Assembly: GCA_016932575.1 (NCBI GenBank)
Contig: JAFGCO010000007.1
Coordinates: 62,001 to 126,000 of the forward strand
From: a bacterium
Lineage (GTDB): Bacteria > Zhuqueibacterota > QNDG01 > JAFGCO01
Direction: 5' to 3'
DNA length: 64,000 nucleotides
Shown: one piece after another, positions 12,038 to 20,942 of the stretch
How positions within the stretch are numbered: position 1 is the stretch's first letter
How the letters are laid out: the number at the start of each line of letters is the position of its first letter
The notes under the pieces: model-generated
What the model saw: only the letters and a program-made list of their open reading frames with translations
Told to the model about the DNA's origin: nothing
The model's database searches: none
Translations under genes and position numbers: made by a program

Positions 12038-12352
12038 ACGAATATCCTATCATTAAATGAACAGATGATTTGATAAAATAAGAGACACATACTTCAAATT
12101 CAAATGCTTTTTTAGCTAAAATCCATAAAAAATAGTTTAAATATTAGATATATCAATATACACATCGCTAATTAAAGCGCTTCTTCAAAGAAAATGTTTG
12201 CATATCTACATATGCCACTTATATTGAACATAAAGAATAAACCGTTTCTGAATAATTTATAGAAGATTATATAATTATGGCCGGATAAAAATCTAAACAT
12301 GAACAACAATATATATTAAAATAAGATATCTTTTTGAAAAGCTTAAAAAGAA
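12038..12352. promoter_or_regulatory. AT-rich divergent intergenic region, left edge of the defense island
   Basis: About 315 bases, very AT-rich, separating the minus-strand GH3 gene from the plus-strand defense island. It must contain promoters for both sides. An 8-bp palindrome AAGCGCTT near 12175 could be an operator half, but is too short to claim. No repeat or attachment site marking an island boundary was seen. Confidence 0.45.
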
Positions 12353-15304
12353 ATGAATAACTTCAAATACGATGAGTTGAAAAGGAAATATGACGTCCTG
12401 CTTGAAGAGAATAAACGCCTGAAAGCAAAAATTAATGAATTAACCGACAAACCACGAAGTAACATTTCACACCATAAGCCCGTCCAAGCCAGCGAAACAT
12501 TATTTAGCCAGACTGATATTGAGACCTTAAATCAGCAATCAGATGCAGAAATAAACAATACTACCTTCAATAATAATGGTTTTATCACAAAGTATTCTCA
12601 AAACCATGAGAAAATTGCTCTCTTTATGTCACTGTTTAAAAGCAGGACAGATGTATATGCAAAAAAATGGCACACTAAAAAAGGATATTCAGGATACAGC
12701 CCGGTTTGTCTGAATGAATGGAAACCCGGACTCTGTCATAAACCCCGTGAGAAATGTTCCAACTGTAAGAATCAAGCGTATGAAGCGCTCAGTGATTCTA
12801 TCATCGAAAAGCATTTAAAGGGTGAATACATCATCGGGATTTATCCGATGCGGTCTGATGAAACCTGCCATTTTCTGGCCGTTGATTTTGATAACGAAGG
12901 CTGGGAAAAAGATGTCGAAGTGATTCGTGATATCTGCGCCGAGATGAATATTCCAATTGCCGTAGAGCGCTCACAATCCGGCAATGGATGCCATGTCTGG
13001 TTTTTCTTTAAACAAAATCTTTCAGCTGCTCTGGCTCGTAAATTCGGAACCTCTCTACTCACATATGGAATGAGCAAACGATACGTGATTTCGTTTAAAT
13101 CTTATGATAGATTATTCCCCAATCAAGATACTATGCCAAAGGGCGGTTTTGGCAATCTCATTGCTTTGCCGCTTCAGAAAATGGCCAGGGAAAACAATAA
13201 CTCTGTTTTTGTTGATGAAAATTTTATGCCCTATGCTGACCAGTGGCAGTTTCTGGCTGGTGTCCAAAGACTAACTAAAAAAGATTTGACATCGATTATT
13301 ACCAGACTAAACCAGGAAAATGATCTTGGAATTTTGAAAGCGGATGCGTCAGAGACAAAACCATGGAAAAAACAATCTATTGTCCTGGGCAGGCAGGATT
13401 TCCCCAAAACGGTAACAATTGTCAAATCCGGTATGCTTTATATTAAGAAAAAAGGATGGAGCCAGAAAGCGTTAAACACAGTAAAGAGATTCGCTGCCTT
13501 TCAAAATCCGGAATTTTATAAGGCCCAGGCGATGCGATTATCCACTTTTGGAAAGCCAAGGGTCATTTCATGCTCTGATGATTTTGAAAACCATCTGGCG
13601 TTGCCGAGAGGCTGCGAAGCAGACATAAAATCTTTGCTGATGGAAAACGATGTTACTGTGGCAATGGAAGATGAATCCAACCCGGGCAAAGTGATAAAAG
13701 TTGAGTTCAATGGTGTATTACGTGAGGAGCAGGAAGAAGCATATAATGCGTTGACAGGCCATGAAAATGGTGTATTGTCCGCTGCACCGGCATTCGGGAA
13801 GACTGTTATTGCCGCAAAATTAATCAGTTCAAAAAAAGTGAATACATTGATATTGGTTCATCGACGGCAGCTGCTTTCCCAGTGGCGCGAAAAATTGGGA
13901 GAATTCCTTATCATTAATGAACTCCTGCCTGAACAACCAAAAAGTAGGGGCAGAAAAAAAGAATGGCAACTAATTGGGCACATGGCAGCGGGCAAGGACC
14001 GGTTCAGTTCAATTATTGATGTAGCCGTCATGCAATCGTTGTATACGAAAGGAACGGTCAAGGACGCAATTAAAAATTATGGGATGATCATTGTCGATGA
14101 ATGCCATCATGTCCCGGCTGTCACTTTTGAACAAATCCTGAAACAGGCCACGGCGAAATATATTTATGGCATGACAGCAACACCTGACAGATCTGACGGA
14201 CATCATCCGATTATTTTCTTTTATTGCGGGCCTGTTCGATTTTCAGCGGATTCAAAGAAACAGGCGAAAAAAAGACCCTTTGATCACTATCTGGTCCCAA
14301 GATTTACCTCATTTAAAACCACATCTGATGGAAAGGAAGAGACTTTATCTCTGCAAACAATTAAAAGCCGCATGATCTCGGATGAAATCAGAAATCAACG
14401 AATCCTGGACGATGTCGTGGAGTGTTATAAGAAAGGACGAAAATGCCTGATTCTGACAAGCCGGACTGCTCATGTGGAAACGCTGGGTGAAAAACTTAAT
14501 AAGAATTTATCCAATATTATTTGTCTTACAGGCGGCATGAGTGCAAAAAAGACGGCTCGGGTTATGGAGCAGATTAATGCCATCAAACCTGCGGATCCTT
14601 TTGTGCTGGTCGCTACCGGCAGTTATATTGGTGAAGGATTCGATGAAGCACGACTGGACACCCTGTTTCTGGCAATGCCCATTGCCTGGAAAGGAACATT
14701 GCAGCAATATGCCGGCAGGCTTCACAGGTTTCATGAAAACAAAAAGGATGTACAGATCTATGATTATGTCGATCTCCATGTAAACATGCTTGAAAAGATG
14801 TACGGGAAAAGATTGAAAGGATACGCATCAATCGGGTATCAAGTGAAAGCCTCTCCATTTCCCGATGCGCCGACAAATATTATTTTTAATAAAGACAGCT
14901 TTTTCCCGGTGTATCTGCGGGATATAACTGCAGCATCAAAGCATATCCTGATCGTGAGTCCGTTTGTCACACAAAAAAGAATTGAACAAATGATTGGCCA
15001 CTTCAGTGAGCTGATGAAAAAACAGGTAGAGATAACCATGATCACACGACCTGCCGGGGATTTCCAGGAAGAGAGAAGAAGCCGCCTCAAATTATTATTC
15101 TCCAACATAGAATCAAGTGGCATCCGTCTGGTTCTCAAATCCAAAATTCACCAGAAATTTGCGGTGATTGATCATCAAATTACCTGGTACGGCAGCATCA
15201 ATCTGTTGAGCTTCGGCTTTTCTGAAGAGAGCATCATGCGTCTTGAAAGCAGCAGTATTGCCTGTGAACTGGAGGAAAGCGTTCAAGTGGAACCAGATTC
15301 GTAA
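12353..15304 (+). CDS. Primase-helicase-nuclease fusion (AEP-SF2-PLD, TOTE-type conflict system protein)
   Basis: 983 residues. Order: coiled coil (~5-32); a zinc-cluster-like C119-x8-C128-x6-C135-x2-C138; an archaeo-eukaryotic primase domain with DFD (Asp178/Asp180) in FLAVDFD and the SGNGCHVW motif (His214); an SF2 helicase with Walker-A-like APAFGKT (~478-484), DECH (582-585), TATP (608-611) and QQYAGRLHR (~784-792); and a C-terminal PLD domain with H933-x-K935-x4-D940 followed by GSIN. This matches the AEP-helicase proteins described for TOTE conflict systems, which are thought to copy or degrade invader nucleic acid. It sits 90 bases upstream of mod on the same strand, so it may be part of one defense transcript. 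The ribosome binding site is weak, so the start is the least certain part. Confidence 0.85.
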   Translation: MNNFKYDELKRKYDVLLEENKRLKAKINELTDKPRSNISHHKPVQASETLFSQTDIETLNQQSDAEINNTTFNNNGFITKYSQNHEKIALFMSLFKSRTDVYAKKWHTKKGYSGYSPVCLNEWKPGLCHKPREKCSNCKNQAYEALSDSIIEKHLKGEYIIGIYPMRSDETCHFLAVDFDNEGWEKDVEVIRDICAEMNIPIAVERSQSGNGCHVWFFFKQNLSAALARKFGTSLLTYGMSKRYVISFKSYDRLFPNQDTMPKGGFGNLIALPLQKMARENNNSVFVDENFMPYADQWQFLAGVQRLTKKDLTSIITRLNQENDLGILKADASETKPWKKQSIVLGRQDFPKTVTIVKSGMLYIKKKGWSQKALNTVKRFAAFQNPEFYKAQAMRLSTFGKPRVISCSDDFENHLALPRGCEADIKSLLMENDVTVAMEDESNPGKVIKVEFNGVLREEQEEAYNALTGHENGVLSAAPAFGKTVIAAKLISSKKVNTLILVHRRQLLSQWREKLGEFLIINELLPEQPKSRGRKKEWQLIGHMAAGKDRFSSIIDVAVMQSLYTKGTVKDAIKNYGMIIVDECHHVPAVTFEQILKQATAKYIYGMTATPDRSDGHHPIIFFYCGPVRFSADSKKQAKKRPFDHYLVPRFTSFKTTSDGKEETLSLQTIKSRMISDEIRNQRILDDVVECYKKGRKCLILTSRTAHVETLGEKLNKNLSNIICLTGGMSAKKTARVMEQINAIKPADPFVLVATGSYIGEGFDEARLDTLFLAMPIAWKGTLQQYAGRLHRFHENKKDVQIYDYVDLHVNMLEKMYGKRLKGYASIGYQVKASPFPDAPTNIIFNKDSFFPVYLRDITAASKHILIVSPFVTQKRIEQMIGHFSELMKKQVEITMITRPAGDFQEERRSRLKLLFSNIESSGIRLVLKSKIHQKFAVIDHQITWYGSINLLSFGFSEESIMRLESSSIACELEESVQVEPDS

Positions 15305-15395
15305 AAACAGCGTTGCCTGTTTGCCCATTTATCTGTAAATTAACAGAGCTGCCAGGAACAACATTTCGATCATCATAAAACAGGTCAGGGTGAAA

Positions 15396-17318
<1,923 letters not shown>

Positions 17319-17327
17319 CATGATGCG

Positions 17328-17355
17328 GTAGAGACGCAAAATCTTGCGTCTCTAC
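17328..17355. repeat. REP-like palindrome, copy 1 (between mod and the transposase gene)
   Basis: 28 bases: arms GTAGAGACGCAA and TTGCGTCTCTAC, perfect 12-bp pairing, loop AATC. It begins ~10 bases after the mod stop and ends ~10 bases before the transposase start. The same unit recurs twice inside the transposase gene. Such hairpins are the known substrates of REP-associated tyrosine transposases. Confidence 0.85.
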
Positions 17356-17365
17356 ACATTGACAT

Positions 17366-17995
17366 ATGGATAAATACAGACAAAAATATCGAATCAAATC
17401 AACACGATTGCCCTATTGGGATTATGCTTCAAATGGCTATTATTTTGTGACAATTTGCACCAAAGAGAAAGTTCACTGGTTTGGGAAGGTGATAAACTGT
17501 AGAGGCACAAAATCTTGTGTCTCTACAAAAGATGCGCCTCACATGGCCTTGTCGCCCATTGGAAAAATCGCCCGAAAATGCTGGACGGAAATAACGCATC
17601 ATTTTCCATTTGTAACATTGGATGAATTTATCGTCATGCCCAATCATGTACATGGGATTATCATAATTGATAAACCGGATGTAGAGACGCATAATCATGC
17701 GTCTCTACAATCAAACGGAAATAGGTTTGGACCACAATCAAAAAATTTGGCATCCATTATTCGCGGATACAAAATTGGTGTAACGAAATCTGCCCGAAAA
17801 ATCAATCTCAATTTCTCCTGGCAACCCCGGTTTCATGACCACGTCATCAGAAACGAATCTGCTTTAAATCAAATCAGAACGTATATCCAGTTTAATGTTG
17901 AAAAATGGGAGTATGACCGGGAGAATGCAAATGATATCCCAATTGCCATCAAACGAAATGTCTGGAAATCGCTTAAGGAGACTTGCCTGACATGA
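17366..17995 (+). CDS. REP-associated tyrosine transposase (RAYT, Y1/HUH, IS200-like), carrying two internal REP palindromes
   Basis: 209 residues. The HUH metal site is H94-V-H96 in VMPNHVHGIII, and the likely nucleophile is Tyr173 in IRTYIQFNVEKW; the WQPRFHDHVIRNE stretch is typical of RAYTs. The reading frame contains two copies of the same 28-bp palindrome found just upstream, coding residues ~45-54 (RGTKSCVST) and ~106-115 (VETHNHASLQ). Both sit in surface-loop positions: one between the first strands, one directly after the HUH strand. The gene lies between mod and res, and its TGA stop overlaps the res ATG (ATGA). RAYTs are usually single-copy and domesticated; whether this one is active cannot be judged. 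No ribosome binding site is evident. Confidence 0.92.
   Translation: MDKYRQKYRIKSTRLPYWDYASNGYYFVTICTKEKVHWFGKVINCRGTKSCVSTKDAPHMALSPIGKIARKCWTEITHHFPFVTLDEFIVMPNHVHGIIIIDKPDVETHNHASLQSNGNRFGPQSKNLASIIRGYKIGVTKSARKINLNFSWQPRFHDHVIRNESALNQIRTYIQFNVEKWEYDRENANDIPIAIKRNVWKSLKETCLT
17499..17526. repeat. REP-like palindrome, copy 2 (inside the transposase gene)
   Basis: 28 bases: arms GTAGAGGCACAA and TTGTGTCTCTAC, one G-T wobble in the 12-bp stem, loop AATC. It is translated in frame within the transposase. Confidence 0.85.
17681..17708. repeat. REP-like palindrome, copy 3 (inside the transposase gene)
   Basis: 28 bases: arms GTAGAGACGCAT and ATGCGTCTCTAC, perfect 12-bp stem, loop AATC. It lies 182 bases after copy 2 and is translated in frame directly after the HUH motif strand. 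Confidence 0.85.
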
Positions 17996-20619
17996 AACTC
18001 CATTTCGATCCCAATCAATCCTACCAACTCGAAGCGATTCAGTCGGTAACGTCCATTTTCGAAGGTCAGCCCCTCAGCAAAAGCGACTTTGAAATATCCT
18101 TTCAGACTCAGGATATTTTTTCTTCCATCCAGGGTGTTGCCAACCATTTATCTCTCTCAACCGATCAAATCCTGAAAAACGTACAATCCATACAAAAACA
18201 AAACGAATTGCCGATTTCCAAAGCACTGGACGGTATGCACTTTTCCGTTGAAATGGAAACAGGCACAGGCAAGACCTATGTGTATCTTCGGACGATCTAC
18301 GAATTGAACAAGCTGTACGGCTTCAAGAAATTCGTCATTGTTGTACCCAGTATTCCCATACGGGAAGGTGTCTTGAAGAACCTGGAAATTACTTACGATC
18401 ATTTCCAAACGCTCTACAATAAAGTGCCCTTGCATTTCGAGGTGTACGATTCTAAGCGTGTCTCCAGTCTTCGAAATTTCGCTATTAGTAATACCATTCA
18501 AATTATGGTCATCAATATCGATTCTTTTGCAAAAGATGAAAACATTATTAATCGTCCCAACGATAAATTGACCGGCCAGAAACCCATCGAATTCATTCAA
18601 TGCACCCGACCCATTGTCATTGTGGACGAACCCCAGAATATGGAAACCGACATCAGACGCAATGCCATTGAAAATCTGAACTATCTCTGCACACTGCGTT
18701 ATTCGGCCACCCATATCAACCGTTATAATATGATATTCAGTCTCGATCCCGTGAAAGCCTATGATTTGGGTTTGGTCAAGCAAATTGAAGTGGACTCTAT
18801 TGTCACTGAAAATGATTTTAATGAAGCTTACGTCTGTCTAGAAAGAGTGACGGCTGCGAAAACCTTTACATCCGCGAAAATAAAAATCGATGTCAACACC
18901 AGAGATTGTGTACAAAGGAAAAGTGTGACTGTTCGTGTCGGGGATGATTTGTATTCAAAATCCAATCAACGGGATATTTATCGGGATGGATACATCATCA
19001 ACGGTATTGATGTGGAATCGAAATTTATTTCATTGTCCAATGGCGAGGATGTGTATATTGGTAGTCCCCTGGGTGGATTGACGGACGAGGTGATGAAAGT
19101 TCAGATTCAAAAAACCATTCAGGAACATTTCATTAAAGAAAAAAAATATAAAGAAAAGGGTATTAAAGTGCTCTCGCTGTTCTTTATCGACCGGGTCGCG
19201 AACTATCGTTCTTACGATGAACAGGGCCGATCTGTGCAGGGTAAGTTAGCCCAATGGTTTGAAGAAGCATATAAATCGTTTTCGAACAAATCCGCCTATA
19301 ACGGTCTTATTCCCTTTTCGGTGACAGACGTACACAATGGTTATTTTTCTCAGGATCGCAAGGGATATTGGAAAGACACAAAAGGAAATACTCAGGCTGA
19401 CGACGACACTTATAAATTGATCATGAAAAACAAAGAGCAGCTACTCGACCCTAATGAACCGCTTCGTTTTATTTTCAGTCACTCCGCCCTGCGTGAAGGT
19501 TGGGATAATCCCAATGTGTTCCAGATCTGCACGCTTAATGAAACCCAATCCGAATTGAAAAAGCGCCAGGAAATCGGACGAGGGCTTCGTTTATCTGTCA
19601 ACAGTAACGGCAACCGTGTTTTTGATAAAAGCATTAATCATCTCACTGTGATTGCCAACGAAAGCTATGAAGACTTTGCACGGCAACTGCAAACAGAGAT
19701 TGAAGAAGATTGTGGTGTCACATTCACAGGTCGTATAAAAAATAAACGCGAACGAGTGACCGTTAAATACCGCAAAGGTTTTGAACTGGACGAAACATTT
19801 AGATCAATTTGGGATAAGATTAAATATCAAACCACCTACCAGGTCAATTATAATATAAAAGATTTGATCAGCCGGGCTTCAAAAGCTGTTTCCCAAATGC
19901 CGGAAATTAAGAAAGCAGTCATCAAAACTACAAAAGCGTCTCTGGACATCGAAAAAAGTGGTGTGGTTCATGATATCCGAGCTTCTTATGTAGCGGTTTG
20001 GGAAGGCAAATTTCCAATCCCGGATATACTTGGCTACATTCAAGAAAAAACTGGTCTTACCCGAAAAACCGTCTTTGAAATATTAAAAAAATCGGGTCGG
20101 CTGACAAACGTATTAATTAACCCGCAGCACTTCCTGGATAATGCGGTTTCCATTCTTTCTTCCGTTTTAAATCAATTTTTAATCGACGGCATTAAATATG
20201 AGAAAATTGGGAAAAAAGAATATGAGATGAGATTGTTTGAGGAGTTTGATATTCATCTTAATGAACTAACATTTCGAGTTGAAGACAAAAAGAAAACCAT
20301 CTATGATCAATTCATGCCTTTGGATTCCGGAGTTGAATATGATTTTGCACGGGAGTGTGAAAATCGAGAAGATATCAAGTTCTATTTCAAACTCCCCTTC
20401 TGGTTTAAAATCAAGACTCCTATCGGCCCTTATAATCCGGACTGGGCGTTGATAAAAAAGAATGAGAATACGGTCTATTTTGTCGCGGAAACCAAGTCGG
20501 AAAGACAGGAATTAAGAGAATCAGAAAATCAAAAAATTGAATGCGGTAAAGCTCATTTCAAGGAATTTGACGATATTGAATTCAAACAAGTTTCAAAAGT
20601 ATCAGAGCTTGATTATTAA
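17992..20619 (+). CDS. res: Type III restriction-modification system restriction subunit (Res)
   Basis: About 875 residues. An N-terminal SF2 motor carries Walker A (METGTGKTY, ~92-99), a Walker-B-like VDEPQNM (~210), and motif VI KKRQEIGRGLRL (~525). The C-terminus carries a PD-(D/E)xK nuclease: NPDWALI followed by VAETKS (~815-835). All parts needed for ATP-dependent cleavage with Mod are present, somewhat shorter than the classical ~970-residue Res proteins. The ATG at 17992 overlaps the transposase stop (ATGA), and AAGGAG lies about 11 bases upstream inside the transposase gene; the in-frame TTG at 17983 is too close to it. This suggests translational coupling of res to the transposase. 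Confidence 0.93.
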   Translation: MKLHFDPNQSYQLEAIQSVTSIFEGQPLSKSDFEISFQTQDIFSSIQGVANHLSLSTDQILKNVQSIQKQNELPISKALDGMHFSVEMETGTGKTYVYLRTIYELNKLYGFKKFVIVVPSIPIREGVLKNLEITYDHFQTLYNKVPLHFEVYDSKRVSSLRNFAISNTIQIMVINIDSFAKDENIINRPNDKLTGQKPIEFIQCTRPIVIVDEPQNMETDIRRNAIENLNYLCTLRYSATHINRYNMIFSLDPVKAYDLGLVKQIEVDSIVTENDFNEAYVCLERVTAAKTFTSAKIKIDVNTRDCVQRKSVTVRVGDDLYSKSNQRDIYRDGYIINGIDVESKFISLSNGEDVYIGSPLGGLTDEVMKVQIQKTIQEHFIKEKKYKEKGIKVLSLFFIDRVANYRSYDEQGRSVQGKLAQWFEEAYKSFSNKSAYNGLIPFSVTDVHNGYFSQDRKGYWKDTKGNTQADDDTYKLIMKNKEQLLDPNEPLRFIFSHSALREGWDNPNVFQICTLNETQSELKKRQEIGRGLRLSVNSNGNRVFDKSINHLTVIANESYEDFARQLQTEIEEDCGVTFTGRIKNKRERVTVKYRKGFELDETFRSIWDKIKYQTTYQVNYNIKDLISRASKAVSQMPEIKKAVIKTTKASLDIEKSGVVHDIRASYVAVWEGKFPIPDILGYIQEKTGLTRKTVFEILKKSGRLTNVLINPQHFLDNAVSILSSVLNQFLIDGIKYEKIGKKEYEMRLFEEFDIHLNELTFRVEDKKKTIYDQFMPLDSGVEYDFARECENREDIKFYFKLPFWFKIKTPIGPYNPDWALIKKNENTVYFVAETKSERQELRESENQKIECGKAHFKEFDDIEFKQVSKVSELDY

Positions 20620-20942
20620 TAGACACATATAACAACAAAATCAATATTAATGTGAACCAGCTGAAGTCAAGTCATATATCATTGATTTGTTGAAATTACT
20701 TCGACTCAATGATCCAAAACCCTTATTATTCTATCATCCATTTTTCAACTGCCTCATCAAGAAAAGGTGGGGCAAGCCCCACCCTACAAGATATCATCTA
20801 TCTGATTTTCATATTACCCAATTACCATATTACCAGTTTACCATAAATCGATTCAGGGGTAGGGGCTTGGGGCCTTTTACCCTATACCCTATACCTTAAT
20901 ATCCCTCTTTATTCTTATTTCTTATTTCTTGGTTCTTGACTC
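20620..20942. other. Convergent intergenic region with repeat words, right edge of the defense island
   Basis: About 320 bases between the ends of res and the GH116 gene. It holds a small GC-rich palindrome (listed separately) and then runs of near-repeats: ATTACCCAATTACCATATTACC near 20815-20837 in style, ACCCTATACCCTATACC near 20879, and TTCTTATTTCTTGGTTCTTG near 20918. These resemble the low-complexity tracts near 9740 and 38770. No gene is supported. Confidence 0.5.
20766..20783. repeat. GC-rich palindrome, REP-like or terminator
   Basis: Arms GGTGGGGC and GCCCCACC separated by AA, followed by CTAC. The word is similar to REP units found in many bacteria. It lies ~145 bases past the res stop and could also end that transcript, but no T-run follows. 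Confidence 0.55.

What the first reader, a model, noticed from the sequence alone, without database searches (positions are those of the whole stretch)
12353..20619. Four-gene defense island combining a TOTE-type primase-helicase-PLD protein with a type III R-M system split by a RAYT transposase
Seen: all four genes are on the + strand, set between minus-strand sugar genes, with gaps of ~90, ~47 and -4 bases. Known: AEP-SF2 proteins belong to TOTE conflict systems, and Mod/Res form a type III restriction enzyme. Inference: the primase-helicase-nuclease may work together with Mod/Res, for example copying or destroying DNA cut at unmethylated sites. I do not know of this combination as a described system.
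Basis: partly seen in the sequence, partly recalled or inferred. Interest (0 to 1): 0.8.

Follow-up and report, generated by a model that had tools for sequence, protein, structure and literature searches.

The report
Primase-helicase-nuclease gene beside restriction system
Four genes between sugar-degradation genes are really there, but they are three separately mobile, already known modules (a stand-alone primase-helicase-nuclease, a type III restriction system and a small transposase) that landed together, not a new joint defence system.

Summary
Four + strand genes lie at 12353-20619: an AEP primase-polymerase/XPB-like SF2 helicase/PLD nuclease fusion, type III Mod, a RAYT transposase, and type III Res. 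They sit inside a sugar-gene cluster where a related genome has a single sugar kinase, so the block was acquired. The proposed joint machine is not supported. In 80 loci from many phyla that encode the same protein (nearly all full-length), none has a type III Mod or Res in the fetched flanks (60 have at least 2 kb upstream, 58 downstream). The gene instead sits alone or beside varied defence genes: AbiE, XhoI- or AlwI-type restriction enzymes, Schlafen/AlbA-type proteins, DUF6079. Conversely, relatives of this Mod/Res pair occur without it, often with a different accessory gene between mod and res. 'TOTE' applies only to a domain name; the TPR, OB and TBP components are absent. The AEP domain is closest to CRISPR-associated primase-polymerases, whose helicase-fused form is published; the added PLD domain is the less-documented part. 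The RAYT carries cognate GTAG palindromes inside its own reading frame, a published trait of TnpA-REP subclass 2.4. Best reading: an ordinary composite defence island holding an untested, widespread one-gene candidate.

The parts
12038..20942 (.). acquired block between GH3 and GH116 genes; in a genome of the same order (L154) one PfkB sugar kinase occupies this site
12353..15304 (+). AEP (PrimPol) - SF2 (XPB/UvsW-like) helicase - PLD nuclease fusion, 983 aa, with N-terminal coiled coil and Cys4 cluster
12608..13294 (+). AEP domain (residues 86-314); DxD D178/D180, H214 conserved; CAPP-like fold
12707..12766 (+). invariant Cys4 cluster C119, C128, C135, C138 (putative zinc site)
13715..14731 (+). 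SF2 helicase domains (Walker A GKT 482-484, DECH box 582-585, motif VI R789/R792)
14915..15277 (+). PLD-type nuclease domain, single HxK(x4)D motif H933, K935, D940
15390..17318 (+). type III R-M modification subunit Mod (GTG start; ATG 15396 possible)
16041..16690 (+). Mod middle region between DPPY and FAGSG motifs (target-recognition region), 31.8% GC against 52% on both sides
17328..17356 (.). double-foot GTAG REP palindrome upstream of RAYT
17366..17995 (+). RAYT / TnpA-REP transposase (HVH motif, WQ, YI), subclass 2.4-like
17499..17527 (.). degenerate GTAG palindrome inside RAYT reading frame
17681..17709 (.). GTAG palindrome inside RAYT reading frame, between HUH and Tyr motifs
17992..20619 (+). 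type III R-M restriction subunit Res (ORF opens at TTG 17983; ATG 17992 preferred, 4-nt overlap with RAYT stop)

Best explanation
The island is a composite of three independently moving modules that landed in a sugar-utilisation cluster of a Calditrichota-lineage bacterium. (1) A stand-alone primase-polymerase/helicase/PLD protein. Most likely it dimerises through its N-terminal coiled coil and single-HKD PLD domain, its XPB/UvsW-like motor moves along forked or replicating invader DNA, its PLD domain cuts it, and its AEP domain binds 3' ends or extends/primes strands. It would act as a DNA-targeting defence effector on its own. Shown: domains, fold, intact active sites, wide distribution, varied defence-type neighbours. 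Inferred: dimerisation, substrate and defence. (2) An ordinary type III R-M system: Mod methylates one strand of its site, and Mod-Res cuts between unmodified sites after ATP-driven sliding. (3) A subclass 2.4-type RAYT element sitting in the mod-res interval, a slot that holds other accessory genes in relatives. No functional coupling between (1) and (2) is needed or supported.
For: 0 of 80 loci with the AEP-SF2-PLD protein have type III Mod/Res in fetched flanks, by blastp and HMM. Neighbours vary: DUF4143, AbiEi/ii, Schlafen/AlbA, Fic, XhoI, AlwI, DUF6079. Closest Res/Mod relatives lack the AEP gene and either have mod and res adjacent (L144, L093) or split by PDDEXK nuclease (L142), AAA+DUF4276 (L134), RhuM-like (L135), VapBC-like (L136) or a hypothetical gene (L143). 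Alternative site with PfkB in L154 shows acquisition. EcoP15I Res and Mod are the PDB matches. Active sites nearly invariant in 72 full-length homologues; AF2 fold matches CAPP PrimPol (TMt up to 0.83) and XPB/UvsW helicases.
Against: Four same-strand genes with short gaps could still be one transcript here. Restriction genes of other types do lie directly upstream of the AEP gene in a few relatives (XhoI-type in L011 and L015, AlwI-type in L044), so a loose functional link with restriction in general is not excluded. The defence role of the AEP protein is not demonstrated by any experiment found; repair or mobile-element replication remains possible.
Confidence: 0.8

Rival explanations
1. The primase-helicase-nuclease and the type III R-M system form one machine: Res cuts unmethylated invader DNA, and the AEP-SF2-PLD protein loads on the ends and copies or destroys them.
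For: Same strand, short gaps. Type II restriction genes adjoin the AEP gene in a few relatives.
Against: No type III Mod/Res in flanks of 80 homologues, including the closest ones at 60-72% identity; Mod/Res relatives lack it.
Confidence: 0.07
2. The AEP-SF2-PLD protein is a DNA repair or mobile-element maintenance enzyme, not a defence effector; its neighbours are cargo of the same islands.
For: Helicase part closest to XPB/UvsW/RadD repair helicases. AEP-helicase proteins are common in mobile elements (PMC8211822). A Thermus Ppol first reported as a defence protein (PMC7693054) was later linked to AddAB and genome stability (PMC9751324).
Against: Sporadic distribution (9 of 82 genomes of the phylum match at E<=1e-60); neighbours rich in defence and toxin-antitoxin genes; no replication or integration genes evident in the window block.
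Confidence: 0.3
3. The AEP-SF2-PLD gene is a genuine TOTE conflict-system effector.
For: Pfam AEP-TOTE E=1e-102.
Against: TOTE means TPR, OB, TBP, Effector (PMC12458937); no TPR, OB/CSD or TBP gene lies in the block, and none was among the commonest neighbour families.
Confidence: 0.05

Closest known systems
CRISPR-associated primase-polymerases, CAPP_A type 3 (PrimPol-helicase) and non-CRISPR relatives (PMC8211822)
   Same: AEP domain aligns with Marinitoga CAPP (7nqd, E=1e-10; fold TMt up to 0.83), followed by a helicase; often outside CRISPR loci
   Different: carries an added C-terminal PLD nuclease, a Cys4 cluster and an N-terminal coiled coil; no CRISPR array in the window or in the 80 loci by a simple repeat scan
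Type III R-M (EcoP15I, 4zcf; Mod 6k0w)
   Same: Mod with DPPY before FxGxG and target region between; Res with SF2 motor and C-terminal PD-(D/E)xK nuclease
   Different: Res is shorter (about 875 against 970 aa); a RAYT lies between mod and res
TnpA-REP subclass 2.4 (PMC6006769)
   Same: NHVH and WQ motifs, double-foot GTAG REPs flanking and inserted in frame between HUH and Tyr
   Different: Y motif is YIQFNV rather than YIxNNP; the REP is confined to this locus in its genome
DISARM/Druantia/Dpd helicase-PLD defence systems
   Same: SF2 helicase combined with PLD nuclease
   Different: XPB-like rather than YprA-like helicase, AEP fused, no DUF1998 partner seen

Membership tests
Type III R-M system | Mod: beta-class N6/N4 methylase with DPPY upstream of FxGxG | tested here: met
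   IDPPYNTGND and DFFAGSGTTAH in that order; Pfam, PADLOC MTase_III E=1e-182, PDB EcoP15I Mod
Type III R-M system | Res: SF2 ATPase plus C-terminal PD-(D/E)xK nuclease | tested here: met
   GTGKT, DEPQ, NPDW...AETK; RE_endonuc E=9e-35, EcoP15I Res E=2e-53
Type III R-M system | activity (methylation, two-site ATP-dependent cutting) | not testable with these tools
   needs enzymology or methylome
TOTE conflict system | AEP-TOTE effector domain | tested here: met
   PF22548 E=1.2e-102
TOTE conflict system | linked TPR, OB (CSD) and TBP components | tested here: not met
   block holds only the four genes; definition
CAPP (CRISPR-associated PrimPol) | CAPP-like AEP catalytic domain | tested here: met
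   (NCBIfam PrimPol_Msp matched at 106 bits, below its 200-bit cut-off)
CAPP (CRISPR-associated PrimPol) | location in a CRISPR-cas operon | tested here: not met
   no array found, no cas gene in the block
RAYT / TnpA-REP subclass 2.4 | HUH and Tyr motifs, double-foot GTAG REP flanking and inside the ORF | tested here: met
   flanking REP found on the upstream side only
New joint AEP/type III R-M system | recurrent gene association | tested here: not met
   0 of 80 loci

The most novel reading that the evidence does not exclude
AEP-SF2-PLD is a widespread, so far uncharacterised single-gene anti-invader system (found here in Desulfobacterota, Bacteroidota, Clostridia, Planctomycetes, Omnitrophota, Calditrichota and others) that couples primase-polymerase, translocase and nuclease in one chain and is placed beside whichever defence module is at hand.
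Probability: 0.4. Interest if true: 0.5.

Novelty: new member of a known kind. Interest (0 to 1): 0.25.

Why it matters
It removes a tempting but unsupported four-gene system and points to a cleaner target: one gene, conserved with all three active sites across many phyla, that can be tested alone. If it defends, it would be a DNA-copying and DNA-cutting defence enzyme in a single polypeptide, and would bear on why primase-polymerases keep appearing in defence islands.

Tried and rejected
Joint AEP/type III system: rejected by neighbourhood survey. TOTE membership: rejected on missing partners. CRISPR link: simple array scan of the window and 80 loci found none. RNA family in the block: none. 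Viral origin of the AEP protein: only one weak helicase match in viral contigs and helicase-only matches in phages. In-frame REP palindromes inside RAYT looked new and were followed in 44 homologues, but PMC6006769 already describes them for subclass 2.4, so the novelty claim was dropped. Promoter/terminator scans were barely above shuffles and not used. The count of AbiE and similar genes by distance is biased because families were chosen from near neighbours, so it is only supportive.

Full report
OBSERVATION. The four genes are present at the stated coordinates on the + strand. Pfam, PADLOC and NCBIfam identify an AEP primase-polymerase / SF2 helicase / PLD fusion, a type III Mod, a RAYT and a type III Res. 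PDB sequence matches give CAPP PrimPol and XPB helicase for gene 1, EcoP15I Res for gene 4, and Mod structures including EcoP15I for gene 2. The Res start is best placed at ATG 17992, since homologues align from residue 4, giving an ATGA overlap with the RAYT stop.

SURROUNDINGS. The block lies between GH3 and GH116 genes in a long minus-strand sugar cluster. In another genome of the same order (G013, locus L154) the GH116 and GH3 relatives (62% and 77% identical) are separated by one PfkB kinase gene, and several further window genes match the same contig. So the four genes were acquired at this site, and the flanks make a chimeric contig unlikely. GC of the AEP, RAYT and Res genes is 39-42%. 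The Mod middle region is 31.8% GC against 52% on both sides, as expected if the target-recognition region was exchanged.

IS THE COMBINATION REAL? A scan of 84,980 species genomes with an alignment of gene 1 kept the 80 best loci, nearly all full-length and from many phyla. None has a homologue of Mod or Res in the fetched flanks, by blastp or by HMMs built from six Mod and seven Res sequences. In all, about 946 kb of flank was available; 60 loci have at least 2 kb upstream and 58 at least 2 kb downstream. Nearest neighbours include DUF4143 ATPases, Schlafen/AlbA, AbiEi/AbiEii, Fic, XhoI, HipA and ParE. Individual checks show MTase-XhoI directly upstream (L015), AlwI (L044), Schlafen/AlbA with a 4-nt overlap (L012), DUF6079 (L014) and an AbiE pair (L137, which by length and sequence appears to be the same contig as L038). 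Many others are housekeeping genes. The gene therefore behaves as a single-gene cargo of defence islands. A weak general association with restriction genes is possible; an association with type III R-M is not seen.

THE R-M SYSTEM. Relatives of this Mod/Res occur on plasmids and chromosomes without the AEP gene. In L144 mod and res are adjacent and in L093 the Mod end directly precedes Res; in L142 a PDDEXK nuclease lies between them with the same 4-nt overlap onto res; in L134 an AAA ATPase plus a DUF4276-like gene; in L135 a RhuM-like gene plus another; in L136 a VapBC-like pair; in L143 a hypothetical gene (some of these names are by eye from the sequence). The mod-res interval is thus a variable slot, here filled by a RAYT.

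THE RAYT. Three GTAG double-foot palindromes lie at 17328-17356, 17499-17527 and 17681-17709; the last two are inside the reading frame. They are the only copies in the 4.4 Mb genome at up to 3 mismatches. Among 44 RAYT homologues of the phylum with an HUH motif, 32 have a palindrome between HUH and Tyr, against 4% expected from synonymous shuffles. The internal palindrome matches the flanking one of its own gene (0 of 10,000 permutations as good, 13 genes). 23 of 26 GTAG-type copies are in one reading frame. One such palindrome was found only in 4 of 82 genomes, mostly at the RAYT. The sample was chosen by similarity to a query that itself contains the insert, a small bias. This trait is already published for TnpA-REP subclass 2.4 (PMC6006769), so it is known, and it identifies the element.

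HOW GENE 1 MAY WORK. Shown: AEP catalytic residues D178, D180 and H214, Cys4 cluster, Walker A, DECH box, motif VI and HKD motif are 94-100% conserved in 72 full-length homologues. The AF2 model (mean pLDDT 81) matches CAPP PrimPol domains (TMt up to 0.83) and XPB/UvsW helicases. Inferred: coiled-coil and PLD-mediated dimer; motor-driven tracking on forked or replicating DNA; PLD cleavage; AEP binding or extension of ends. The published PrimPol-helicase architecture (CAPP_A type 3 and its non-CRISPR relatives, PMC8211822) is the nearest described relative; the PLD addition was not found described in the papers searched, but much literature is outside the library. The history of Thermus Ppol (defence phenotype later tied to AddAB; PMC7693054, PMC9751324) is a warning against assuming defence.

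VERDICT. The locus is a composite of known kinds with one interesting uncharacterised component.

Noticed in passing
window 17328-17709: GTAG double-foot REP palindromes, two inside the RAYT reading frame, found nowhere else in the genome; known for TnpA-REP subclass 2.4.
   Followed up: yes
window 17318-17992; L134, L135, L136, L142, L143: The interval between mod and res of this type III family is a variable slot that holds unrelated accessory genes (nuclease, AAA+DUF4276-like, RhuM-like, VapBC-like, RAYT), in two cases with an ATGA overlap onto res.
   Followed up: partly
window 16041-16690: Mod target-recognition region is 31.8% GC inside a 52% GC gene, suggesting exchange of specificity.
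   Followed up: no
L137 3466-5009 (same contig as L038), L043, L051; L041, L053, L066: AbiEi/AbiEii genes, or an AbiEi-like gene alone, sit directly upstream of the AEP-SF2-PLD gene on the same strand; a more recurrent partner than any restriction system.
   Followed up: partly
L006 1501-2694: Closest same-phylum relative by identity (70%) of the AEP gene is cut off after residue 378 near a contig end, next to a tyrosine recombinase.
   Followed up: no
L154 11691-12578: A PfkB kinase lies between GH116 and GH3 in a related genome, where the window has the defence block.
   Followed up: partly
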